A DNA stretch of 64,000 nt, taken from contig NZ_JTJC03000001.1 in NCBI RefSeq assembly GCF_000817735.3, positions 691,710 through 755,709 on the forward strand. Direction: 5' to 3'. Source of the DNA: Scytonema millei VB511283. Lineage in GTDB: Bacteria; Cyanobacteriota; Cyanobacteriia; Cyanobacteriales; Chroococcidiopsidaceae. Position 1 is the first letter of the stretch; each line of letters begins with the position of its first letter. Under the pieces are notes generated by a model. That model was not told where the DNA came from, ran no database searches, and saw only the letters and a list, made by a program, of their open reading frames with translations. Shown here piece after piece: positions 29,481 through 41,249 of the stretch. The position numbers and the translations under genes are program-made.

Positions 29481-31361
29481 TTATTCAGGCTTGCGAACAA
29501 ACTCCTGTTGACTTGACGCAAAAGAATACATCTTGTGTCCCGTAAAGCTAAGTAGAGCCACACAAGCAGCACTAACTAAACGGGCAGCAGTAGCATTCCA
29601 ACCAGCATCATCCATCAACAGTTGTAACAATCCTAAATTTGCCAGCAAGCTGTTGAGAGCAACTGTGGCAAACACGGCGTACTGAATTATCCAGTTCTGC
29701 CAATACACACCAAAAACAAAGCGACGACTCAGCCAAAAATTAGTCGTCAATCCCATAAAATAGCTAATACACAGGGCTGAGACAGACCAAACGCCAGACT
29801 GAACCAGCAGTGAAAAAATCAAGACATCAACGACTGTTGCGGCTCCACCGGTAAAGACGTAGCCACCAAATTCTTTCAAAATTTTGAGTGTCTTTTGTCG
29901 GCGAGGAGCTTTTTTAAGCGTATTATGTGTAGTAGTTTTAGCGGTTGCACTAGCTTCTTCCTGGTATTCGCTATCTGAATTAACCGACCAAAGATTGTGC
30001 TTGCCGGGACTCAAAACATTTTCTGCGGCTAGAATCCCCATCAATAAGCTGTGGTCTTGATTGTTGTATTTGAATGCACCGTATCTTCCGACCAGTTGAA
30101 GATTCGGAAATTGCTGTAAATAAGACTGAATATCGCTCAGTGCTTGTTGATAGTTACCTGCATAAATTGGGTAAGTGCGGGGTAAGCGAACGACAAATCC
30201 GCTAGAAACTTTTTCGTGATGTAAAAGCCCAATTTTTCGCAGTTCTTGTTCTGCTCGCTCTAACAGTTCTGCTTCTGGTTGCTGCCACATTGGTTCGTCG
30301 TAGTTGCACCAATACTCGCAGCACAATGGTGTTTGATGTTGATTTGGCAACATCTCAGGCGACCAATTCGCAAAATTGGTGACTCGTCCTAATTGCACGC
30401 TTGGCTCGTTAATGTAAAGCCAGTTATCTGGGAATAAGTTATTGCCTTCGACGATTAAATAGACCAAAATTGTATTGCGAAACTTGAGAGACTTGGCAGC
30501 TGCGATCGCCTCTGATGGAGCAGGTGGATTTATTTGCTGCACCAACAGACTAATGGGTACGGAAGAAATTACGCCGCCGCAGTCAACTGTTGACTCCTCT
30601 CCTGTCTGGCGATTTCTTAAGGTAATTTGGGTAACTTGAAAGTTATCGTGGTGAACCTGTACGACCTCTGTATTTAACAACACGCTTTGATTGTGCTGGC
30701 GCAGGTATTCACCGATTTTTTCATACAATTGACCCGAACCTAACCGAGGAAATTCAAACCGATCGATCAGTGTTTTGACTTTGCCATCGTTACCCAATAA
30801 AGCACTTCGAGCTGCCTTCAACAAGGATAAGCCTTTAATGCGTTGTGCAGCCCAATCTGCACTAATTTCAGTACAGGGTATGCCCCAAAGTTTTTCTGTG
30901 TAAGCCTGAAAAAATATTTCAAATAGTCGCCGACCAAATCTGCTCGTTACCCATTGGGCGAAATTACGGGGGTGGCGATTGGGAAATAACTGCGATTGAG
31001 CATATGAAACGAGAATCTTGACGCTTTCAATCGGTCCCATCGTCAGTAAAGCTTCTTTAGCTTTGAGCGGATAGCTGAAATACTTTCCCCCGTAGTAGAT
31101 GCGTGTCAGGCGATTGACAGTAACTCGATCTTTTCCTAAGACTTCACTCCAAAGTTTGAGTACAGGAGCGAGTTTAGTAAAAAAGCGATGCGGACCAAAA
31201 TCTAGAATAAAGCCTTGATATTCAATACTTTTTGCTAATCCGCCTACCCTAGCATCTCTTTCTACTACTACGACTGGCTGACCTTTTTGAGTTAAGGTGT
31301 AAGCCGCTGCTAGTCCTGCTGGACCTGCTCCTAGAATATAGATTGGATTAGCTTTACTCAT
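29481..31361 (-). CDS. FAD-dependent oxidoreductase fused to GtrA-like membrane domain
   Basis: Unusual two-part protein of 626 aa. Residues 1-470: flavoprotein of the protoporphyrinogen-oxidase / UDP-galactopyranose-mutase superfamily, with the FAD motif YILGAGPAGLAAAYTL, the second loop VVVERDARVGGLAKS, FGPHRFFTK, and a C-terminal FAD region YAGNYQQALSDI ... GRYGAFKYNNQDHSLLMG. After a polar, basic linker (about 470-505), residues 505-625 hold four hydrophobic segments and the GtrA signature FWLSRRFVF and GHKMYSF. GtrA proteins are thought to help polyprenyl-linked sugars across the membrane. GGAG lies just before the ATG at 31361. It could modify a sugar and hand it over at the membrane; substrate unknown. 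Confidence 0.85.
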   Translation of the reverse strand: MSKANPIYILGAGPAGLAAAYTLTQKGQPVVVVERDARVGGLAKSIEYQGFILDFGPHRFFTKLAPVLKLWSEVLGKDRVTVNRLTRIYYGGKYFSYPLKAKEALLTMGPIESVKILVSYAQSQLFPNRHPRNFAQWVTSRFGRRLFEIFFQAYTEKLWGIPCTEISADWAAQRIKGLSLLKAARSALLGNDGKVKTLIDRFEFPRLGSGQLYEKIGEYLRQHNQSVLLNTEVVQVHHDNFQVTQITLRNRQTGEESTVDCGGVISSVPISLLVQQINPPAPSEAIAAAKSLKFRNTILVYLIVEGNNLFPDNWLYINEPSVQLGRVTNFANWSPEMLPNQHQTPLCCEYWCNYDEPMWQQPEAELLERAEQELRKIGLLHHEKVSSGFVVRLPRTYPIYAGNYQQALSDIQSYLQQFPNLQLVGRYGAFKYNNQDHSLLMGILAAENVLSPGKHNLWSVNSDSEYQEEASATAKTTTHNTLKKAPRRQKTLKILKEFGGYVFTGGAATVVDVLIFSLLVQSGVWSVSALCISYFMGLTTNFWLSRRFVFGVYWQNWIIQYAVFATVALNSLLANLGLLQLLMDDAGWNATAARLVSAACVALLSFTGHKMYSFASSQQEFVRKPE

Positions 31362-31515
31362 GTCACTCCACACTACACTAGACTACATGTTTAAACTTTT
31401 ATAAAGTTTCAGACAATATACATGCATCGCGATCGTCTTGACAACCGCTATTTATTGTCAATATCTACAAATATGTCGAGTCGCTGAGCGCTAGCGTTAG
31501 CAAATCCACTAACTC

Positions 31516-31680: not shown

Positions 31681-32673
31681 TTAAAGATCGCAACTCCGCA
31701 TACAGCACAAATAGAAACAGTAAGACTTTTCTGGCTGATCGTTCAAAGCCTCACCACTAATAGCCTCCTCACAAAAATGTTTCATATCCAAGTTATTCTC
31801 AATAGTTTTAGACAGATCGATCAGACCTTTTGTTTCAACAATCTTGAAATTGTGCCTCTCTAAAATTCGGCACAAGTCACTGTAAAAGTATTCAATTTTA
31901 TGTTCGGGATGAATATAACCTTTAGGACACTGTATTTGAGTTGCAGAGCGATTTGGAGTATCCAGTGCCAGCTTACCCCCTGGTTTCAACAACTTGTATG
32001 CTTGAGCAAACACTTTTTCAGCCTCTTCTGTGGTCACGTGTTCTATCGATTGTCCTGACCAAATTAGATCGAAAGAACCTTCCTCAAACAGAGATAGGTC
32101 GCTCATGCTGGTATAGACATAATTAATGTCGCAACTTTTGTATCTAATATGCTGTGCCAGCTCAGAAGCATTTAGCATCCTTTCATCGGGAGGTAAGTCG
32201 GCAATATATATTTTTTCTGGTAAATATGGATAGCCGAAGCTTAACAAAGCACCACGAGCGTCACCAGTAGAAGCTCCTCCCAAGTCTAAAATGACTTTTG
32301 CTTCTGGAAGCACCGTTCTAATCAGTTTAAATCTAGCATGATGAAGCTTAGCATTGAGTAGATGCCAATAGTCTTTACTACTCAATGGACGTAGTTGAAA
32401 TTCGATAGAATCGACTAACATCCTCAATAGAGCAGTTCGACTCAAGCCCTGATCGAGTACGTTCAACCAGTTTGCTAACCCATCTGAATCGATGTCGCGC
32501 TCAAATATAACTTTATACGCCATTCTCAAATAGTTCTCGTCAGAAATTGCCTCCATTTCATGCAAGTTTTCATTAGAGCCTTTTTGGTTTTTCAATTCGT
32601 GTTTAGTAAACTTTTTAACGATTGTTTTTACAGAAGTGGGAGCTACTTTGGCAAAAATGTTTTTGGCATTCAT
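31681..32673 (-). CDS. DUF4214 domain plus class I methyltransferase
   Basis: Polysaccharide-cluster protein. After a basic N-terminus comes a DUF4214 unit (ENYLRMAYKVIFERDIDSDG ... LSRTALLRMLVDSIEF), then a SAM-dependent methyltransferase with motif I VILDLGGASTGDARGALLSFG, LIWSGQSIEHVTTEEAEKVF and LLKPGGKLALDTPN. The acceptor is unknown but the setting points to a sugar O-methyl group. I use the ATG at 32673. An in-frame TTG at 32715 is possible and would add 14 residues; neither has a good ribosome site. It is preceded by a terminator-like hairpin at 32795. The neighbouring gene at 32847 has the same DUF4214-methyltransferase design, although the two catalytic domains are clearly different. 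Confidence 0.82.
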   Translation of the reverse strand: MNAKNIFAKVAPTSVKTIVKKFTKHELKNQKGSNENLHEMEAISDENYLRMAYKVIFERDIDSDGLANWLNVLDQGLSRTALLRMLVDSIEFQLRPLSSKDYWHLLNAKLHHARFKLIRTVLPEAKVILDLGGASTGDARGALLSFGYPYLPEKIYIADLPPDERMLNASELAQHIRYKSCDINYVYTSMSDLSLFEEGSFDLIWSGQSIEHVTTEEAEKVFAQAYKLLKPGGKLALDTPNRSATQIQCPKGYIHPEHKIEYFYSDLCRILERHNFKIVETKGLIDLSKTIENNLDMKHFCEEAISGEALNDQPEKSYCFYLCCMRSCDL

Positions 32674-32794
32674 CTTGTTAGCTTTTAGTTTTGAAATTTC
32701 AGATGATTCTTTCAAAAAGCATCGCCTTTTTTATCTACCTTAAAGCAGATATTACATTATTCTTTATTTAGAAATACTGACCATACAAAACTCT

Positions 32795-32824
32795 AATAAG
32801 AGGAGCAGTTACGCTCCTCTTATT
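32795..32824 (-). terminator. Hairpin within the polysaccharide cluster
   Basis: A perfect 12-bp stem (AATAAGAGGAGC with GCTCCTCTTATT) and a 6-base loop, followed on the minus strand by AGAGTTTTG. It lies 22 bases after the stop of the gene at 32847 and may end or attenuate the upstream transcript. Confidence 0.65.
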
Positions 32825-32846
32825 CATAGCAAGTTGCTTGTTGAAC

Positions 32847-34004
32847 TCACAAAACTTTTGACGATCGCGAACTAATCCGATCGGCGATCGCTTCTGTTTT
32901 TTGCTGCTCGCCACGTTTAGAAAAAACAAAGTATGACTTTCTCGCGATCGATGTTTTTTCCATGTAAGCATCATATTTTTTGTGCAGCACTTTTTCAACT
33001 TCTACTTCTCGTTGAAAACCATGTTGTTCAAATTGTTTTACCCACCAGTGCCAATCAGCCCAAATTAAATGTCCGTTAATCGGATAGCCGTCTTTATCGA
33101 CATGCAGCAGGGTAAAAGGCTTTTCTTGAGCAATATCTTGTTCCCACTCCTTGATATAAATAGGAAAAACCGTACCAAAGATTGGATCGTCACCAAATGC
33201 CGGAATATTGCCAAATAAGTAACCGCCATCAACTAATATTCGATCTATGCGATCGAGATAGTCGTGCAGTTTGTTGGGATTTAAGTGTTCAAATATATCC
33301 AGACCAAAAATTAAGTCGTATTTTTCCGAAAGCTCTAGTTCTAACAAATCGCCATGATGGATATTATTTTTGATGTCAGGAAAAGCTTTATCAATTGCCA
33401 TCGAGCTAATTTCTATTCCTTCGCAATGGATATTCATCTCATGCAAACATTGCAGAATAGTTCCATTGGCACAGCCTATCTCTAAAGCTCTTTGGGGGTG
33501 AAAAGCTGACATGATTTCAGCCATGACTTTCTTATCTTTATCAATTCTAAAACCCCATACACCAGGTTTTTCATAATAACCATGTTTGAGAATCATGGCT
33601 TCTAGCCAATCAAAATCATCTGAAGTTTCTACAAAAAATACTAAAGCATTATTAGGTTGTAAAAGGTCTTCTACTGCATAGTAGTTGTTTGGTTTAAGTT
33701 CTCGTAAATTTTGAATTTTAATATTTTCCTTTAAAACTTTGTTAATAAACTCATCCGACTGAACTAAAGTCATGAGTACGTCGGTTCTGCTGTAGCTCGT
33801 TTGGAGGAGCTTAATGTAATGTTTTAACCCATCTTCATCGACTTCTCGTCCTAAAAGTTTGCGATAAGCATCTACTAAAAATTCTCGATCTGATAAAGTT
33901 TCTGACTCTGAATTAAAACTCTTATTTGAGAGCGAATCAGAGATTTTCCCAATTGTTTTGCTAGCTCTGCTTGAGAGATTTAAGAGTTGACTCAGATAGC
34001 TCAT
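32847..34004 (-). CDS. DUF4214 domain plus class I methyltransferase
   Basis: Protein of 385 aa. Residues about 35-90 form a DUF4214 unit (DREFLVDAYRKLLGREVDEDG ... SRTDVLMTLVQSDEF). A linker leads to a methyltransferase with motif I ALEIGCANGTILQCL near residue 175, GDLLELELSEKYDLIFGLDIFEHLN, and VDGGYLFGNIPAFG. DUF4214 is a short helical repeat found in bacterial surface and glycan-related proteins; its task here may be to dock on other cluster enzymes. The gene starts 44 bases inside the 3' end of the double-GT4 gene, so translation is probably coupled. Confidence 0.83.
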   Translation of the reverse strand: MSYLSQLLNLSSRASKTIGKISDSLSNKSFNSESETLSDREFLVDAYRKLLGREVDEDGLKHYIKLLQTSYSRTDVLMTLVQSDEFINKVLKENIKIQNLRELKPNNYYAVEDLLQPNNALVFFVETSDDFDWLEAMILKHGYYEKPGVWGFRIDKDKKVMAEIMSAFHPQRALEIGCANGTILQCLHEMNIHCEGIEISSMAIDKAFPDIKNNIHHGDLLELELSEKYDLIFGLDIFEHLNPNKLHDYLDRIDRILVDGGYLFGNIPAFGDDPIFGTVFPIYIKEWEQDIAQEKPFTLLHVDKDGYPINGHLIWADWHWWVKQFEQHGFQREVEVEKVLHKKYDAYMEKTSIARKSYFVFSKRGEQQKTEAIADRISSRSSKVL

Positions 34005-36327
34005 GACTACAATTCTCCTCCATCATTAGGACGATTTTATTTAACTTTTCAATGACTGCGGGAGGCGAAAACTTGTTTCGCTGTTGGCGCTGAGCAGCTA
34101 TTACCTTTTCTCTCAGCGATATATCTTTAGCAAGAATCTTTGCCAAGGCTGCGATTTCAACAAAGTTTTCCTTATTAGTAAACATCAGCCCAGCTTTACC
34201 TAATGTCTCAGGAATCGCACTGCTTTTGTACGCCAGAATCGGTACGTCAAACCACATCGCCTCAACTAAGGGAACGCAAAATCCCTCATGTTCGCTCATC
34301 GACCAAAAGAGGTGAGCAGTACGATAAAAAGCTAAGAGTTGGGCATCGTTGACTTGTCCTGGAAACATCACGTAGTTGGTTACGTGCAACCGATGCATCA
34401 AGCTCGTGACGTGGTGATAGTATGGATCGTTGATGTCGCCGCCACCGATAAGAATCAATCTTGCCTCTCGATCCATTGTCAAGTAATGGGCAAAAGCTTC
34501 TAGAAGGTGGTCTTGGCGCTTATGAGGCGAGACGCGCCCGACAAAGAGGAGATTAGTTTTACCATCCTGTAACTGCTGCATCAATTGTGGATCTGCTGCC
34601 ATGTCCCACTTTTTTGGGTCTATAGGTATGGGCAGTACACCCGGTGTGGTAAACCCAGATTCCGCGAGTTCAGAGGCATTATAGGTAGACACGCCAACTG
34701 AGAGGGGGAAGTGTTGGGCAAGTTGGTTTAATTCAGCCCGACCTTGTTCTAGTAATTGGGCAACATCGGGGCGATACGACCGAAAAAACTCGGCAGGTGT
34801 GATGTTGTGATAGATGAGGCATTTCGTCCCGGGATGAGCGATCGCGTATTCTGTGACTTCGCAACCAATCGAGTGATGATAAATCAATCCAGCCTGTTGA
34901 CCGATACTTTTAGCATGAGGTCTTTTGGCTTCATGGGTGGCGCGTGGGTCTAAATGTTCGGCAAAAATTTCTGATTTGTAACCAAGGGCTTGTAAATAGT
35001 TTCTAATCCACCTAGCATGGTTAGAAATGGCATCCCCGTACGAAAAACCAGCCATCAGTTGATGAATTTCTTTCAGTTTCTGTTGTGGCTTTGGGGAAGT
35101 GGCTGGAACGGTTGTCAGCCCTAAAATAGTTTCATAGCGATCGATGACTCCATCCCAACTCGCATTTTTCCTAGCATAGTTTTGACCGTTTGCACCGTAT
35201 TCTGCTAGCTGTTCCATTCCAGCGCGATCGATTTGGGCAAACATCTCTGCCCATTCAAATTCTGTTGCTGCTAGCCAACCTCCCCGCGCGCTTTTGACAG
35301 CACTTGCAGTTGCCAAGCAATCTTGATGTACGACTACGGGTCGTCCGTAGAACCAGGCTTCCATCATGACGCGAGAGTAACTTTCATTCCGACTGGGTTG
35401 AAATAAAGCCAAGCAGTTTGCTAGCAGTGCTTCTTTCTCGCTTTCTGACACCAAACCAAGATCGGTTAACCCTGGCACAGAGTCGTGAAATGATGTTTCT
35501 CCCGAACCAGCTAAAATCAATTGCAAACTAGAGTCTGGATACTTCTGCTTGAAAATAGCATAAGCTCTGACTAAGAAATCTGTATTTTTTGTTGCATCTC
35601 GGCGACCGAGATAAAGAATATAGCGTTCTTTTTTGAGTGCGAGATTGCCAATATGAGTTAGAGTCGGATCGTCTTGCTGTCCAACTTCTATTCCCTCTCC
35701 AACGACACAACTTTTGCAAATAATCCCAGGACCGTATAACTTTTTGGCAAGTTGCTCTTCACCTTCGCTATTGAATAATAAACCGCGTGCTAGGTGAAAC
35801 ATCTGCTCGACTTGCGGCAAATAAGCATAAGCTTCGTCATGCAAACAGGGTTGTAAAAAAGCGCGATCGGCAACAAGTGACAGTCCATTTAAAATTGGAC
35901 CGTACAGATAGGGGATGAATAAAAATGCTTGATATTGATGGTGATGAGTTTTGAGAAAGTGTAGTAGTTGGGGCGCACTAATACTCTCCGCGCAAAATAT
36001 TGCCGCATCATCTAAGCTGACTGGACTGACTCCTGGTTTGAACTGCGCAGTCGGTACTCTCAGCATGAGATGATTGACTTGATTGAAAGCATCGTGATCG
36101 GTGCGGACGACCTTAAACCGACGAATTGCAATCCCTTCCTCTTGACTTAATCCAGGCTTGTAATGATTTTCTGCCCAGTTGCGATCGAAAGCTTGACAGC
36201 AAGTTGTGAGAATTTCAACTTTGTGTCCTCGTCGAACCAAACGGGAGGCGATCTGCCAAGCTTGTTGTTCTGCGCCGCCTTTTAAAGCTTTACCAAACCA
36301 AGGGATTACAATCGCCAGTGGCTTCAT
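33961..36327 (-). CDS. Protein with two GT4 glycosyltransferase domains
   Basis: 788 aa with two complete GT-B modules. The first (residues 1-400) starts LAIVIPWFGKALKGGAEQQAW, a GT4 N-terminus, and has YILYLGRRDATKNTDFLVRA and the donor motif FQPSRNESYSRVMMEAWFYG. The second (about 415-760) has YHHSIGCEVTEYAIAH, NLLFVGRVSPHKRQDHLLEA and FWSMSEHEGFCVPLVEAMWF. Such fusions typically add two successive sugars, or alternate them, in ABC-exported glycans. It overlaps the coiled-coil methyltransferase gene by 4 bases and the next gene by 44 bases, indicating coupled expression. Linkage and sugar are unknown. Confidence 0.9.
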   Translation of the reverse strand: MKPLAIVIPWFGKALKGGAEQQAWQIASRLVRRGHKVEILTTCCQAFDRNWAENHYKPGLSQEEGIAIRRFKVVRTDHDAFNQVNHLMLRVPTAQFKPGVSPVSLDDAAIFCAESISAPQLLHFLKTHHHQYQAFLFIPYLYGPILNGLSLVADRAFLQPCLHDEAYAYLPQVEQMFHLARGLLFNSEGEEQLAKKLYGPGIICKSCVVGEGIEVGQQDDPTLTHIGNLALKKERYILYLGRRDATKNTDFLVRAYAIFKQKYPDSSLQLILAGSGETSFHDSVPGLTDLGLVSESEKEALLANCLALFQPSRNESYSRVMMEAWFYGRPVVVHQDCLATASAVKSARGGWLAATEFEWAEMFAQIDRAGMEQLAEYGANGQNYARKNASWDGVIDRYETILGLTTVPATSPKPQQKLKEIHQLMAGFSYGDAISNHARWIRNYLQALGYKSEIFAEHLDPRATHEAKRPHAKSIGQQAGLIYHHSIGCEVTEYAIAHPGTKCLIYHNITPAEFFRSYRPDVAQLLEQGRAELNQLAQHFPLSVGVSTYNASELAESGFTTPGVLPIPIDPKKWDMAADPQLMQQLQDGKTNLLFVGRVSPHKRQDHLLEAFAHYLTMDREARLILIGGGDINDPYYHHVTSLMHRLHVTNYVMFPGQVNDAQLLAFYRTAHLFWSMSEHEGFCVPLVEAMWFDVPILAYKSSAIPETLGKAGLMFTNKENFVEIAALAKILAKDISLREKVIAAQRQQRNKFSPPAVIEKLNKIVLMMEENCSHELSESTLKSLKQS

Positions 36328-37865
36328 ACTTTATATCCAATAAGGGCATAATCACGGGGACCAAAAAACCAGTTATGGAGGATTCGCATTTCTGGCTCGT
36401 CGCGATCGAAAGGACTCGTTTCGACTGGGTTTAAGTGTAAGATTTGAACGTTATGCAAGCCTTGATAGGTAAACAAGAATTGCATACTTTCTGGGTAGAG
36501 GGGTCTTTGGTGAGTCGGATCGGAATAAAAGTCACAAGCCCCTACGAGTAAATTTTGCGGATTTGGCGTTTCAAAAATAGCGATTCCATTTGGTTGTAAG
36601 ACTCGCAAGACTTCTGTAATCAAGGTGAGCAACTGCGCAAAAGACAAGTGTTCGATAATATGAAAGCCAGTCACGGCTCCCAAGCTATTTTCTGGTAGCG
36701 ATCGCAGGTAAGTAATAACATCGGCTTCAATCGCCTCCAGTCCCCTAGACTGACATTGCTCGATCGTGACTCGGTTAATATCGAGTCCTTTTGCCGTATA
36801 TCCGTTGTCACGTAACAGTTCTAGCCATTCACCCCGTCCGCATCCTACATCTAAAATTGTTGCGTCTGGCGTGCCTACGTTGGCAGCGGCAATCTTCGGC
36901 AAGTAGACTTTGAGTTTATTTGTAATGTCTTCCCGCGAGCCGCGAAATCGTTCTTCAAACGCGGCATAAAAGGCATCTAGCGAGTGCTGATTTTCATCGA
37001 AAAAGCCGATCAAATGCTCTTGACTAAAAGCTCCTGGTAGGCGTTGCCGTGCTTCTTCGAGAAACAGAGTAATCAATCGCTTTTGCTGTGCTAAGTCATT
37101 TTTGAGATAGCTATCGTTTCGGTTGTGACGGTCTTCGATCGCCAGCAAGTGAGCATCCATGCTACTAATACGAATACCAATACCATTCAATCCTTCTTCA
37201 GTCAACTTGAGGCGATCGCTGAATTGCTCTAAGTTGAATTCACTGGCATGGATGCGAGCGCTATTTTGACTAAGCCGCTCCTCGCTAGCGTTTAAGCGTT
37301 CTCGATTTTGCTTGACTTGCTCTTGAGTGGCATGAATCTGGGTCACTTGCTCTTGGGTGACGCTATTGAGCCGCTCTCTAATCCGAGCCAGCTGCGATTC
37401 GCTCGAACCGAGGCGATCGCCTAATTGAGCTATCCGAGCTTCTGTAGAACTGAGGCGATCGCTCATGCTACTCATTTGAATTTTTAACTCGGCTACCTGT
37501 TCGCTCAGCCGTTGCTCGATCGCCGCTACCTCTCTTAATCCTTGACTGAGAGAAAAATTAACGACTCGTTGCTCTTTCTGAATAAAGTTGTAAATTTTGA
37601 GACTATACTTTTTTAACCAACCGACATTAAAGGGAAAGCGATCGAACTTTTTGGGCCAATGAGTGCGGACTTGAGCCTTGAACTCAGCATTACTCGCTAA
37701 TGCTTCTATGTGGCTGATATTGACCACTTCTTTCGCGATCGCCCCTGTGACATGGCGATCGTGCTGTAATACCGTCAGCAAATCTGGCTGTCGTCGAGAA
37801 ACTTCCTCTGTAATTTTTTGTTTTAATTCCTCAATATTTATTTCTGGATTATTTGCTTCAATCAT
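36324..37865 (-). CDS. Coiled-coil methyltransferase, candidate chain-length ruler
   Basis: 513 aa. Residues 1-100 are helical. Residues 137-245 are a regular coiled coil of 14-residue units, most starting Arg-Leu/Ile (RLSSTEARIAQLGD, RLGSSESQLARIRE, RLNASEERLSQNSA, RIHASEFNLEQFSD, RLKLTEEGLNGIGI, RISSMDAHLLAIED) plus one 25-residue unit. A class I SAM methyltransferase follows (motif I ATILDVGCGRGEWLELLRDNG at about 335-355, VTGFHIIEHLSF, LRVLQPNGIAIFETPNP). In E. coli O9a, WbdD pairs a methyltransferase/kinase with a coiled coil that sets O-antigen length. This protein has the methyltransferase and coil in the opposite order and no kinase. The role as terminator or ruler is inferred from architecture and from the nearby wzm/wzt genes. 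Confidence 0.8.
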   Translation of the reverse strand: MIEANNPEINIEELKQKITEEVSRRQPDLLTVLQHDRHVTGAIAKEVVNISHIEALASNAEFKAQVRTHWPKKFDRFPFNVGWLKKYSLKIYNFIQKEQRVVNFSLSQGLREVAAIEQRLSEQVAELKIQMSSMSDRLSSTEARIAQLGDRLGSSESQLARIRERLNSVTQEQVTQIHATQEQVKQNRERLNASEERLSQNSARIHASEFNLEQFSDRLKLTEEGLNGIGIRISSMDAHLLAIEDRHNRNDSYLKNDLAQQKRLITLFLEEARQRLPGAFSQEHLIGFFDENQHSLDAFYAAFEERFRGSREDITNKLKVYLPKIAAANVGTPDATILDVGCGRGEWLELLRDNGYTAKGLDINRVTIEQCQSRGLEAIEADVITYLRSLPENSLGAVTGFHIIEHLSFAQLLTLITEVLRVLQPNGIAIFETPNPQNLLVGACDFYSDPTHQRPLYPESMQFLFTYQGLHNVQILHLNPVETSPFDRDEPEMRILHNWFFGPRDYALIGYKV

Positions 37866-37924: not shown

Positions 37925-38518
37925 CTAATCCGTAGGCACGATTGTTTTGACTATTTTTGCTGGAACCCCTGCAACAATTTGATAGCTGGGAACATCGCCT
38001 TTGACAACTGCACCTGCTGCGACTACAGAATGCTTGCCGATTTTGCAAGGACCAATGACTGTAACATTACTGGCTATCCACACTCCCTCCTCGATCGCAA
38101 TATCATTTCCTTCAGTCGGAAAATCATACATTCTAGCTTTACCAAACTTGGTGTAATCGTGGGTTCCGGTAATCAAGCTGACGTTATGACCGAAAAAAAC
38201 ATCTTCTCCAATACATATAGTGCCAGAAGATAAGTTAAATAGAGCATTATTGACAACGCACGATGCTGATAGTTTAAGTCTTTGGGGATCGCCATAAACT
38301 AAATAATGGTTTAATTGCACTTGTTCGATGCGTTTCTCTAGATCGGCTTGAGCTAGTTTTTGGTTTAAATAACTATCGATTTGTGCTTGCCAATAACCTT
38401 GAGATAGTTTTTGACTTAAATAATTATCGACCCACCCTTGCATCCAATTTTTTAATTTAGATTTAAAAAAATTATGATTAAAAAAGGAATTTAAAAATTT
38501 ATCGATTGTCCCGTACAT
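37925..38518 (-). CDS. Hexapeptide-repeat acetyltransferase
   Basis: Acyltransferase of the left-handed beta-helix type (WbbJ/NodL/Maa-like), 197 aa, probably O-acetylating a sugar of the glycan. The C-terminal half shows hexapeptide turns: SSGTICIGEDVFFGHNVSLI, the His of the active site in TGTHDYTKFG, then EEGVWIASNVTVIGPCKIG and HSVVAAGAVVKGDVPSY, ending VAGVPAKIVKTI. The first 75 residues are an unusual helical extension with two similar units (VDNYLSQKLSQGYW and IDSYLNQKLAQADL). The gene starts 28 bases inside the 3' end of the Wzt-like gene, so it is translated with the transporter. Confidence 0.9.
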   Translation of the reverse strand: MYGTIDKFLNSFFNHNFFKSKLKNWMQGWVDNYLSQKLSQGYWQAQIDSYLNQKLAQADLEKRIEQVQLNHYLVYGDPQRLKLSASCVVNNALFNLSSGTICIGEDVFFGHNVSLITGTHDYTKFGKARMYDFPTEGNDIAIEEGVWIASNVTVIGPCKIGKHSVVAAGAVVKGDVPSYQIVAGVPAKIVKTIVPTD

Positions 38519-39870
38519 GCGAGTTCCTCACATAGTCTGATCTGCCTACCTGCGACTTGGAATACACCATCGACGAAATCATTGACTGCTGCTTGGATGG
38601 TAATCGCATTTTGAATCCAGTCGAGCATCTCTAAATTTTCATGAGGACCATCGCCAAATGCAATATCAAAAGCATAGCTACCTCCGGCAAGGTGGGGCCA
38701 AATAAACTCGAATTCGACTGTCGCTCTACCAATTTCCGATTTTGATAACCAGTAATCGGCAAATTCTTTATCTAAAAGTTCGGTACTCCAACCGGAAAGC
38801 ACGGTTCGCAGACGATCTAATAAAGCAATACCAACGTTTGGTTTTCTGACGCGATCGTGCCTAAATGTAGTAATTCTGACTTTAACAATGTCACCTGGAT
38901 AAACTAATTGAATTGGGCGATCGTTTGCTCCTAATAAACAGATATCTTCTATTTCTGCTCGACCCGTACCAAATCTTTCATAGTTAGCAAATGATAGAAA
39001 TGGTTTATTAGTAAAAGGATTGATTTCTTTAATTGTGATTTTCTGAATATCAATATTTTCATCATTCTGATTGTTAATCGCTATACTATGGGGAACATCT
39101 GGGCGATCGTGGAGGTGTGAAGCAGTACGTTTATTGACTTCCTCGTGTACCCAAGCTTGATAATGCTTGCAAACTTCCGCTGGTTTACCGCGATCGACAA
39201 CGATCCCTTGATTCATCCAAAGCGCTTTTGTACAAAGGCGCGAGACTGCCCCCACATCGTGAGATACATATAAAATTGTCCCACCACTATCTTGAAATTC
39301 CCGAATTTTTGCCATACACCGATGTACGAACACGCCGTCTCCTACAGCTAGTGCTTCATCCACAATTAAAATTTCGGGATTGACATTAATCGCGACAGCA
39401 AAAGCTAAGCGGACAAACATACCGCTAGAATAGGTTTTAACGGGTTGTTCCATAAACTCGCCAATTTCTGCAAAAGAGGCAATTTCTTCAAACTTAGTTT
39501 CGATTTCGGCTCGGTTTAAACCTAAAATCTGTCCGTTAAAAAAGACATTTTGCCGTCCGGTAAACTCGGGATTAAACCCGCTCCCTAACTCAAGTAAAGC
39601 AGAAACTCGACCGCTAACATATACTTCCCCTGTTGTGGGTGTTAGCGTTCCTGCAATAACTTGTAATAACGTACTCTTACCAGAACCATTTTGACCGATA
39701 ATTCCTACAGTTTCCCCCTTTGTTACCTCTAGGCTGATATCTTTCAACGCCCAGAATTCCTGGGCGCGGCTTTTGCCAGGTAATAAAATCTCTTTGAGTC
39801 GATCTATCGGGCGGTTGTAACACCTGTAGCACTTCGAGATTTGTTTTAAGGAAATTGCAATCTCACTCAT
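38491..39870 (-). CDS. wzt: ABC transporter ATPase, Wzt-like, with sugar-recognition tail
   Basis: ATPase of a polysaccharide exporter, 459 aa. Residues 1-245 are the nucleotide-binding domain: Walker A VGIIGQNGSGKSTLLQ, Q loop FFNGQILGL, signature TYSSGMFVRLAFA, Walker B EILIVDEALAVGD and the switch His in LYVSHDVGAV. A C-terminal domain (about 300-445) with beta-strand pattern (VYPGDIVKVRITTF, VEFEFIWPHLAGGSYAFDIAFG) corresponds to the Wzt_C carbohydrate-binding module, which in E. coli O9a reads the modified chain end. Such a tail is expected where a terminal modification exists. I use the ATG at 39870; an adjoining GTG is possible. It lies 19 bases after the permease stop. Confidence 0.93.
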   Translation of the reverse strand: MSEIAISLKQISKCYRCYNRPIDRLKEILLPGKSRAQEFWALKDISLEVTKGETVGIIGQNGSGKSTLLQVIAGTLTPTTGEVYVSGRVSALLELGSGFNPEFTGRQNVFFNGQILGLNRAEIETKFEEIASFAEIGEFMEQPVKTYSSGMFVRLAFAVAINVNPEILIVDEALAVGDGVFVHRCMAKIREFQDSGGTILYVSHDVGAVSRLCTKALWMNQGIVVDRGKPAEVCKHYQAWVHEEVNKRTASHLHDRPDVPHSIAINNQNDENIDIQKITIKEINPFTNKPFLSFANYERFGTGRAEIEDICLLGANDRPIQLVYPGDIVKVRITTFRHDRVRKPNVGIALLDRLRTVLSGWSTELLDKEFADYWLSKSEIGRATVEFEFIWPHLAGGSYAFDIAFGDGPHENLEMLDWIQNAITIQAAVNDFVDGVFQVAGRQIRLCEELACTGQSINF

Positions 39871-39889
39871 CACACGCTGCTAGGCAAAA

Positions 39890-41044
39890 CTAGAGGACAT
39901 CGGCAAAAGCTGGGCGTAACTTCTTGTATATCCAGAAGCCGCCTGCAAACACAACCAGAGAAACTATGCCAGCAATTGCCCACTCTCCCCAATGTTTCAC
40001 TTCTCCCACTAACACCAAGCCGCGATAAGTTTCTGCGATCGTTGCCATTGGATTTAACCAGAATACCCAGTCTCTAATTTGAGGTGGAATGAGAGATTCG
40101 GGATAAACAATTGGCGCTAAATATAACCAGATATTTAAAATAACTGCTAAAGTCTGAGGAATATCTCGCAAAAATACTGTTAGTCCCGCGGCAATATATG
40201 CCAGTCCTGATGTAAATAGTATTTGAGTCAGCCAAAGTAGAGGTAGCAGTAAAAGCGTGATGTGAATCGTTTTTGTGGTTACTGCTACCAGAAAAATCAA
40301 TGCCATCAATCCAAACGTGCTTTCAACAAATGCAGATAGCACTGGTACTAAAGGTAGAAGAGACAAAGGAAAAACAACTTTCTTAACTAGGTTAGTATTG
40401 CCTACAACTGAGTTTGAAGACTGTAACAGTCCGTTGGTAAAAGCTATCCAAGGCAACAATCCGGCAAACAGCCACAAACCAAATGTCAAACTATTATTTT
40501 CTGGTAGCCCTTTTAAGTTAAGCCTGACCTTCATCACAATTGAAAATACATAAGTGTAAATTAATAATTGTGACAGTTGGTTTAACAAGGGCCATATATT
40601 CCCTAAAATCGACCCCTTATACCGCGCCTCTAGATCCCGCTGTACTAAAGTCCTAAGTAGGTAGAGCTTTGTCCATAATTCAGGCTTAACTAACAGCGAT
40701 CGCTTCAGATTTTTAGCTAGATCTTTAACTAAATGAATAACTTCCTTTACCGAACGCCGATAGATGTTCCCTTGCAGCAAGCCTGTAGCGATTGGTAGGA
40801 GTCCCACAACAATGAGGGCAATCCTCATCTGGCGTAATAGAGGAGCATTAATTAGGTCAAAATAGCCTAACATGCCGATCGCGAGAGCAATTGCGATCGC
40901 AACTTTGCCGCTTGCCAGCAAAACATGGCTTTTTTTCCTGCTAGCGATTGGCGGGAACAGGAGCAAATAACCTCCTCTGTAGGCTAAAGTCGCCTCTAGT
41001 AAGATAGCTATTCCTAGAATCAAACCGAGCAGTGGAGTTAGCAT
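39890..41044 (-). CDS. wzm: ABC-2 type permease, Wzm-like, with extra N-terminal membrane region
   Basis: Membrane subunit of the polysaccharide exporter. Residues from about 125 on match the ABC-2/Wzm family: the amphipathic helix with LYLLRTLVQRDLEARYKGSILG, then six spans including LWLFAGLLPWIAFTNGLLQSSNSVVGN, VFPLSLLPLVPVLSAF and FWLNPMATIAETYRGLVLVG. Wzm proteins are usually near 260 aa; here about 120 residues with three hydrophobic segments precede the standard part. I start at the ATG at 41044; a TTG three codons earlier is in frame, and no good ribosome site is visible. It is first in the 41-to-24.5 kb minus-strand cluster, so the promoter should lie in the repeat-rich gap upstream. 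Confidence 0.9.
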   Translation of the reverse strand: MLTPLLGLILGIAILLEATLAYRGGYLLLFPPIASRKKSHVLLASGKVAIAIALAIGMLGYFDLINAPLLRQMRIALIVVGLLPIATGLLQGNIYRRSVKEVIHLVKDLAKNLKRSLLVKPELWTKLYLLRTLVQRDLEARYKGSILGNIWPLLNQLSQLLIYTYVFSIVMKVRLNLKGLPENNSLTFGLWLFAGLLPWIAFTNGLLQSSNSVVGNTNLVKKVVFPLSLLPLVPVLSAFVESTFGLMALIFLVAVTTKTIHITLLLLPLLWLTQILFTSGLAYIAAGLTVFLRDIPQTLAVILNIWLYLAPIVYPESLIPPQIRDWVFWLNPMATIAETYRGLVLVGEVKHWGEWAIAGIVSLVVFAGGFWIYKKLRPAFADVL

Positions 41045-41249
41045 TAAGCCCAAGCTATAGGAGTTTTAAGAACAGTAGTATAAAAAATCTGCTTGACGGC
41101 AACACTCAGCCTTTAAATTGCGTTAGTTACGCTCAAAGCAAAAGTTGCCTTCGCTGCGATCGTTTTGATGACTAACGGACAAGACCAAATGAAGCATGAA
41201 TTAGTTTCCCACAAAAAGTTACAAGATACTCTTTCACACCGTCGTTTCA

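What the first reader, a model, noticed from the sequence alone, without database searches (positions are those of the whole stretch)
36324..37865. Methyltransferase with a regular 14-residue coiled-coil repeat next to wzm/wzt: candidate glycan length ruler
Residues 137-245 contain six 14-residue units, most beginning Arg-Leu/Ile, plus one 25-residue unit, followed by a SAM methyltransferase. Its gene sits three genes after a Wzm/Wzt exporter pair whose ATPase has a C-terminal sugar-recognition domain. In E. coli O9a the WbdD coiled coil sets chain length and its modification is read by Wzt. Here the coil precedes the methyltransferase, there is no kinase, and the unit length is strikingly even. 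I infer a variant ruler/terminator system in a cyanobacterium. Adding or losing 14-residue units between strains would be a simple way to change glycan length.
Basis: partly seen in the sequence, partly recalled or inferred. Interest (0 to 1): 0.72.

Follow-up and report, generated by a model that had tools for sequence, protein, structure and literature searches.

The report
Repeat-built ruler enzyme for surface glycans
A cyanobacterial gene beside a sugar-chain exporter encodes a rod-shaped enzyme, related to the E. coli O8 chain-capping enzyme, that probably measures and caps surface sugar chains; in relatives the rod grows and shrinks by repeat units, which could be a natural way to change chain length.

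Summary
On the MINUS strand (37865..36324) a 513-aa protein has six 14-residue units plus one of 25 at residues 137-245. A heptad register runs through 97-255 with one break at 176; AlphaFold gives helices 97-172 and 183-275, then a methyltransferase. Domain order is swapped: coil first, methyltransferase last. Wzm and Wzt lie upstream in 51 of 71 orthologous loci; a GT4 gene follows directly in 65 of 66 scanned. Best reading: a coiled-coil ruler holding a cap-adding methyltransferase whose cap Wzt reads. New: coil length is hypervariable and repeat-built. DNA tandem arrays occur in 35 of 70 genes against 16 of 676 neighbours, mostly 42-nt periods, and coil lengths of independent pairs differ by multiples of 7 in 11 of 22 cases. 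That this changes glycan length is inferred, not shown; in the window's own genus the length is constant.

The parts
36324..37865 (-). coil-methyltransferase gene, 513 aa (N-terminal region, coiled coil, C-terminal methyltransferase)
37557..37652 (-). residues 72-103, conserved stretch ending in the QRxVN motif; proposed membrane- and polymerase-proximal end (inferred)
   Evidence: conserved in alignment A1; function not tested
37041..37577 (-). residues 97-275, predicted long helix / coiled coil
   Evidence: helices 97-172 and 183-275 in the model; heptad path 97-255 with one break
37131..37457 (-). residues 137-245: six 14-residue units plus one of 25
37299..37373 (-). residues 165-189, the 25-residue unit holding the register break (stutter) at 176
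   Evidence: helix break 173-182
36327..36977 (-). residues 297-513, SAM methyltransferase of the type found in the E. coli O8 cluster
38491..39873 (-). wzt, 460 aa, ABC ATPase with Wzt_C domain (PF14524, E 2e-23); Trp419 aligns with cap-stacking Trp362 of A. aeolicus
39890..41053 (-). wzm, 387 aa, ABC-2 permease
37925..38518 (-). hexapeptide acyltransferase, 197 aa
33961..36327 (-). double GT4 glycosyltransferase, 788 aa, start overlaps the methyltransferase stop by 4 bp; candidate polymerase (inferred)
   Evidence: 65 of 66 downstream neighbours scanned are GT4

Best explanation
It is the chain terminator of an ABC-transporter-dependent surface polysaccharide (O antigen or similar) and works like the WbdD ruler. 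The N-terminal region sits at the membrane, probably with the GT4 polymerase encoded next door; a coiled coil of about 24-27 nm (159-179 residues) holds the methyltransferase away from it; only chains long enough to reach the far end are O-methylated, which stops growth; the C-terminal domain of Wzt recognises the methyl cap and starts export. Shown here: coil, methyltransferase, homology to the O8-cluster enzyme, gene order, Wzt domain, and that coil length of the family changes by repeat units between relatives. Inferred: terminal methylation, membrane anchoring, polymerase binding, oligomeric state, and that coil length sets glycan length.
For: 48% identity over 155 aa, E 8e-50, to the methyltransferase that follows wzm-wzt in the E. 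coli O8 cluster; PMC3482155 (passages) calls O8 WbdD a simple methyltransferase and chain termination essential for export in O9a. Wzm and Wzt upstream in 51 of 71 loci, some Wzt in 56 of 71. GT4 directly downstream in 65 of 66 scanned, 25 of 67 with 4-bp overlap. Wzt model matches A. aeolicus WzmWzt bound to O antigen, TM by target 0.82, profile E 6e-153; the Trp that stacks on the methyl cap there (PMC9445017, passages) is W419 here, W in 23 and Y in 5 of 28 rows. Continuous heptads and long helices in the model. PMC5082667 (passages): insertions and truncations in the WbdD coil lengthen and shorten chains. [quoted passage not shown]
Against: 9 of 71 loci have no Wzt although at least 7.7 kb upstream were held, three of them Microcystis by contig match or genus. 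In six loci Wzt is only 243-246 aa, too short for a cap-reading domain. Two A. aeolicus pocket residues (Thr346, His350) are not kept here. Roseobacter plasmid homologues sit beside type I secretion genes. The model is a monomer at mean pLDDT 78; no trimer was tested. The O8 enzyme has the reverse domain order, and homology covers the methyltransferase only. WsaE, another such methyltransferase enzyme, methylated independently of chain length in vitro (PMC2943079, passages). No glycan data exist for this organism.
Confidence: 0.7

Rival explanations
1. The protein caps chains, but the coil is only an oligomerisation and docking scaffold; its length is nearly neutral, so repeat number drifts by slippage without effect on glycan length.
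For: Coil length is very variable (109-273 residues, SD 37, in 63 proteins), as expected of an unconstrained spacer; length is constant in the window's genus and in 59 of 60 listed E. coli O8 rows (the other is partial) without known reason.
Against: Heptad periodicity is kept in 66 of 69 cyanobacterial proteins; engineered coil changes alter chain length in O9a (PMC5082667, passages); coils in general vary less in length than other regions (same review).
Confidence: 0.2
2. The methyltransferase decorates internal residues of an exopolysaccharide and the coil only keeps it at the membrane; there is no termination.
For: Many exopolysaccharides are internally methylated (recalled); some homologues lack a nearby cap-reading Wzt or sit beside type I secretion genes.
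Against: Homology to the O8 enzyme, adjacency to Wzt with a Wzt_C domain, conserved cap-stacking Trp.
Confidence: 0.08
3. The length differences are assembly errors in repeats rather than real variation.
For: Several genomes are drafts of hundreds of contigs, and short reads can collapse repeats.
Against: The 13-copy array is on a 4.5-Mb contig and again in the named Anabaenopsis elenkinii chromosome (L113 and L182). L134 and L135 (genomes of 1 and 2 contigs) differ by 22 residues and L114 and L116 (9 and 6 contigs) by 14. The doubled O8 coil is in two complete plasmids from different species.
Confidence: 0.02

Closest known systems
E. coli O8 chain-terminating methyltransferase WbdD (gene after wzm-wzt in the O8 cluster; WP_000535775.1, doubled-coil allele WP_064179390.1)
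   Same: Methyltransferase homologous (48% over 155 aa); no kinase; follows wzm-wzt and precedes a GT gene; a coiled-coil-like segment that can duplicate
   Different: There the methyltransferase is N-terminal and the coil C-terminal; here the order is reversed. The downstream GTs are only distantly alike (28% over 156 aa). The name wbdD for that gene is recalled, not in the annotation
E. coli O9a / K. pneumoniae O3 WbdD
   Same: Coiled coil plus methyltransferase beside Wzm/Wzt; experimentally a ruler (PMC5082667, passages)
   Different: Has a kinase and an N-terminal methyltransferase; no chain named WbdD among the 37 PDB sequence hits
E. coli O101/O162 MT (PMC13168486, passages)
   Same: Methyltransferase plus coil beside wzm/wzt; an intact gene is needed for O-methylation
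   Different: Methyltransferase N-terminal, coil C-terminal; sequence not compared here
K. pneumoniae O7 ORF6 and O12 WbbB (PMC11231755, Discussion part 1 and passages)
   Same: Terminator at the distal end of a coiled coil, ABC exporter
   Different: GT modules fused to the same protein; different terminators
Geobacillus WsaE (PMC2943079, passages)
   Same: wzm-wzt-wsaE order with overlaps, O-methyl cap, methyltransferase with two GT domains (here a separate gene followed by a double GT)
   Different: Fused in one protein; sequence homology not tested; methylation independent of length in vitro
Aquifex aeolicus WzmWzt (8dku)
   Same: Wzt fold over the whole length including the cap-binding domain; Trp419/Trp362
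   Different: Pocket only partly conserved; the sugar here is unknown

Membership tests
WbdD-type coiled-coil chain terminator | extended coiled coil joined to a terminating enzyme | tested here: met
   (prediction only; monomer model)
WbdD-type coiled-coil chain terminator | terminating enzyme homologous to a characterised terminator | tested here: met
   E. coli O8 cluster methyltransferase, E 8e-50; homology covers the methyltransferase only
WbdD-type coiled-coil chain terminator | gene beside wzm/wzt and polymerising GT | tested here: met
   window; 51 of 71 loci; 65 of 66 downstream GT4
WbdD-type coiled-coil chain terminator | enzyme N-terminal, coil and membrane region C-terminal | tested here: not met
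   order reversed; I therefore call it a variant
WbdD-type coiled-coil chain terminator | methylates the non-reducing end and stops growth | not testable with these tools
   needs biochemistry
WbdD-type coiled-coil chain terminator | coil length sets glycan length | not testable with these tools
   needs glycan analysis
WbdD-type coiled-coil chain terminator | trimeric parallel coil | not tested
   only a monomer could be modelled
E. coli O9a kinase-methyltransferase WbdD | kinase domain | tested here: not met
   no kinase family match
cap-dependent Wzm/Wzt exporter | C-terminal carbohydrate-binding domain on Wzt | tested here: met
   Wzt_C PF14524 E 2e-23; fold match
cap-dependent Wzm/Wzt exporter | methyl-cap pocket | tested here: inconclusive
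   Trp and Ala kept, Thr346 and His350 not

The most novel reading that the evidence does not exclude
The coil is an evolvable ruler: gain and loss of 42-nt (14-residue, about 2.1 nm) units by slippage or unequal crossing-over changes the modal length of the exported glycan in discrete steps between close relatives, a genetic dial for surface-sugar length that phages and grazers may keep variable.
Probability: 0.4. Interest if true: 0.8.

Novelty: new variant of a known kind. Interest (0 to 1): 0.62.

Why it matters
Engineered changes of the WbdD coil change O-antigen length (PMC5082667, passages); here nature seems to have run that experiment many times. Pairs with nearly identical methyltransferases but coils that differ by one, two or eight units allow a direct test of whether coil length sets glycan length and how modal length evolves. 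The work also adds a coil-first, methyltransferase-last form to the terminators and ties proteins annotated only as methyltransferase domain-containing to the O8 enzyme.

Tried and rejected
Considered and dropped, or against the reading: (a) The O9a kinase-methyltransferase type: no kinase, no chain named WbdD among 37 PDB sequence hits. (b) That methyltransferase plus double GT is a split WsaE: gene order is alike, but no WsaE sequence was at hand, so untested. (c) A within-species test in E. coli O8: 303 of 5426 genomes match the gene. Of the 60 rows listed, 59 span 1278 bp and one is partial (22%); the 243 others were not listed. The doubled 1434-bp allele was not among the listed rows although its record is in that collection. 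The junction query could not separate doubled from single genes (two-piece matches in the 12 rows shown of 302). So coil length in E. coli O8 looks nearly fixed, which is against frequent change there. (d) The window's genus: three members, one length. (e) Not all differences fit heptads: of 22 differing independent pairs 11 are multiples of 7 and 8 of 14; the others differ by 22 (twice), 29, 37, 9, 24, 1, 55, 15, 3 and 32. The mod-7 test was chosen after seeing pairs, and its null (uniform remainder) is crude. (f) In the wider named set array periods are mixed (also 9, 15, 24, 30, 33, 48, 54, 78, 99, 105 nt), and 21 of 67 segments had heptad z of 3 or less; that segment was cut by a fixed rule and may miss the coil. 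(g) Rows dropped: L054 and L056-L059 by choice, and L123, L124, L138 and L139 for want of the anchor motif, leaving 63 of 72 proteins for tree and lengths; the tree is a quick one of the methyltransferase only. The array control used 70 of the 71 fetched loci's genes (one lost to an overlapping longer ORF) and not the window. In one search two of the 67 downstream genes, those of the window's genus-mates, were left out and the window's own put in.

Searches in print for natural repeat variation in such coils. None of the listed titles or abstract openings reports it; the 2015 ruler paper itself is not held, and most subscription journals are missing.
Full report
What is there. The gene lies on the minus strand, 37865..36324, 513 aa. 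Its stop overlaps the start of a 788-aa double GT4 glycosyltransferase by 4 bp. Upstream on the same strand are wzm, wzt and a hexapeptide acyltransferase; after the GT come two methyltransferases with DUF4214 domains. The other matches of the protein in its own genome are weak (26-33% over part of the methyltransferase).

The repeat. Units start at 137, 151, 165, 190, 204, 218 and 232. Lag-14 autocorrelation z 8.1, lag 7 z 4.2, lag 28 z 5.3, with 0 of 1000 shuffles as high for each. The heptad path explains why 14 beats 7: Arg often sits at g, Leu/Ile at a, and position d largely alternates between Ser/Thr/Asn and Leu/Ile. This resembles the RhxxhE trimer motif, which I recall and did not test. 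The 25-residue unit is 21 + 4, one stutter at 176, where the AlphaFold helix also breaks (173-182, mean pLDDT 78, 42 sequences). The model is a monomer, so the oligomeric state is not shown.

The enzyme. Above Pfam's curated cut-offs the protein matches only methyltransferase families; generic coil models match below theirs. The nearest solved structure is 3dli from Archaeoglobus fulgidus. A tblastn search of the methyltransferase domain against plasmids led to an E. coli plasmid whose genes are rfbK, wzm and wzt (O8 family), this methyltransferase, a 1213-aa GT, a GT4 and wbdC. The match is 75 of 155 residues, E 8e-50. The name wbdD for that gene is my recollection; PMC3482155 (passages) says O8 WbdD is a simple methyltransferase. 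The kinship is therefore with O8, not with the kinase-bearing O9a enzyme. The 788-aa GT and the 1213-aa GT of O8 are only distantly alike (28% over 156 aa).

The neighbourhood across relatives. Matches at E <= 1e-20 (own genome counted): 8 of 40 relatives and 26 of 292 genomes of the phylum. At E <= 1e-30: 53 of 217 in one family, 6 of 12 in one genus, which contig lengths identify as Microcystis, and 3 of 16 in another. Of 71 loci read with flanks, 51 have Wzm and Wzt upstream on the same strand; 5 more have a Wzt without a recognised Wzm; 9 have neither although at least 7.7 kb upstream were held; 6 have 3.2 kb or less upstream and cannot tell. In a wider named set, which overlaps the first, 39 of 80 have both and 51 of 80 some Wzt; among those with both are Deltaproteobacteria, Sulfurimonas and Desulfofundulus, so the arrangement is not only cyanobacterial. 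The gene directly downstream is a GT4 in 65 of 66 scanned; 67 of 71 loci have such a neighbour, 25 with a 4-bp overlap. In Roseobacter plasmids homologues sit beside type I secretion genes instead. Six Wzt of the first set are 243-246 aa, too short for a cap-reading domain.

Wzt. The C-terminal domain is modelled as a beta sandwich (mean pLDDT 82), and the whole matches A. aeolicus WzmWzt with O antigen, 8dku: TM 0.82 by target, 0.71 by query; profile E 6e-153. PMC9445017 (passages) names Trp362 as stacking on the 3-O-methyl cap; it aligns with W419 here, and the column is W in 23 and Y in 5 of 28 rows. By the same alignment Ala348 is kept, Thr346 and His350 are not.

The coil as the variable part. 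Between fixed anchors (the QRxVN motif and FRG) the stretch ranges from 109 to 273 residues (mean 195, SD 37) while the methyltransferase ranges from 203 to 219 (SD 3.7) in 63 proteins. DNA tandem arrays of score 100 or more occur in 35 of 70 of these genes and in 16 of 676 other ORFs of 250 aa or more in the same loci (Fisher p 2e-28, a guide only since related genes are not independent); periods 42 (19), 66 (6), 84 (4), 126 (4) and 63 nt (2). At score 50, 40 of 72 genes have an array; the window gene has none. The longest is 13.1 copies of 42 nt at 97% match (L113; the same in the named Anabaenopsis elenkinii locus L182). Close pairs: methyltransferases 99.6% identical differ by 14 residues (L100/L103), 97.7% by 14 (L114/L116), 98.7% by 22 (L052/L134), 95.5% by 112 = 8 x 14 (L113/L117); but also 96.4% by 29 (L101/L115), 94.2% by 37 (L102/L120) and 93.5% by 9 (L111/L112). 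On 26 path-disjoint pairs of the methyltransferase tree the coil differs in 22: 11 by multiples of 7 (binomial p 8e-5) and 8 by multiples of 14 (p 9e-5). The N-terminal part differs in 14 pairs, none by a multiple of 7; the methyltransferase differs by at most 2 residues except for one 9-residue tail. PMC5082667 (passages) reports that coiled coils vary in length on average 3.6 times less than other regions, so this family is the reverse.

The O8 system itself shows one natural case. A 52-residue segment is exactly duplicated in the 477-aa allele on complete plasmids of E. coli ECONIH4 and Serratia marcescens 95, while a 425-aa allele has it once. Two of 6 plasmid records carry the doubled form; of 60 listed E. 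coli genome rows 59 are single length and one is partial. That unit is not a whole number of heptads.

How it most likely works. In WbdD the coil holds the terminator about 200 A from the polymerase, and insertions or truncations lengthen or shorten chains (PMC5082667, passages); [quoted passage not shown] Here the polypeptide runs the other way, so I infer that the conserved N-terminal stretch is the membrane and polymerase end. A 14-residue unit adds about 2.1 nm of rod (0.1485 nm per residue, recalled).

Verdict. The feature is not an artefact and not the O9a type. The ruler idea is known; the reversed domain order and the unit-wise natural variation are what I find new, as far as could show. 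Cyanobacterial LPS can be a phage receptor (PMC4390846, passages), which gives variation a possible reason. Whether variation is tuned or neutral is open.

Noticed in passing
L227:2831-4264 and L228:2492-3925: E. coli O8-type methyltransferase gene with an exact 52-residue coil duplication on plasmids typed IncX5 of E. coli and Serratia marcescens; the single-copy allele is on other plasmids and chromosomes.
   Followed up: partly
window 31681-34004 (-): Two neighbouring methyltransferase genes, each with an N-terminal DUF4214 domain.
   Followed up: no
window 29481-31373 (-): One ORF joins an FAD amine-oxidase-like domain to a GtrA-type membrane domain.
   Followed up: no
L224:4529-9375 and L225:3283-8052: In Roseobacter plasmids the related methyltransferase lies between HlyD-type secretion genes and a large glycosyltransferase, with no Wzm/Wzt annotated in the stretch.
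   Followed up: no
L155-L158 (Microcystis): Coil built of 22-residue (66-nt) units, 2.2 to 3.4 copies by species, with no Wzm/Wzt found in the DNA held; three of the four have 3.2 kb or less upstream.
   Followed up: partly
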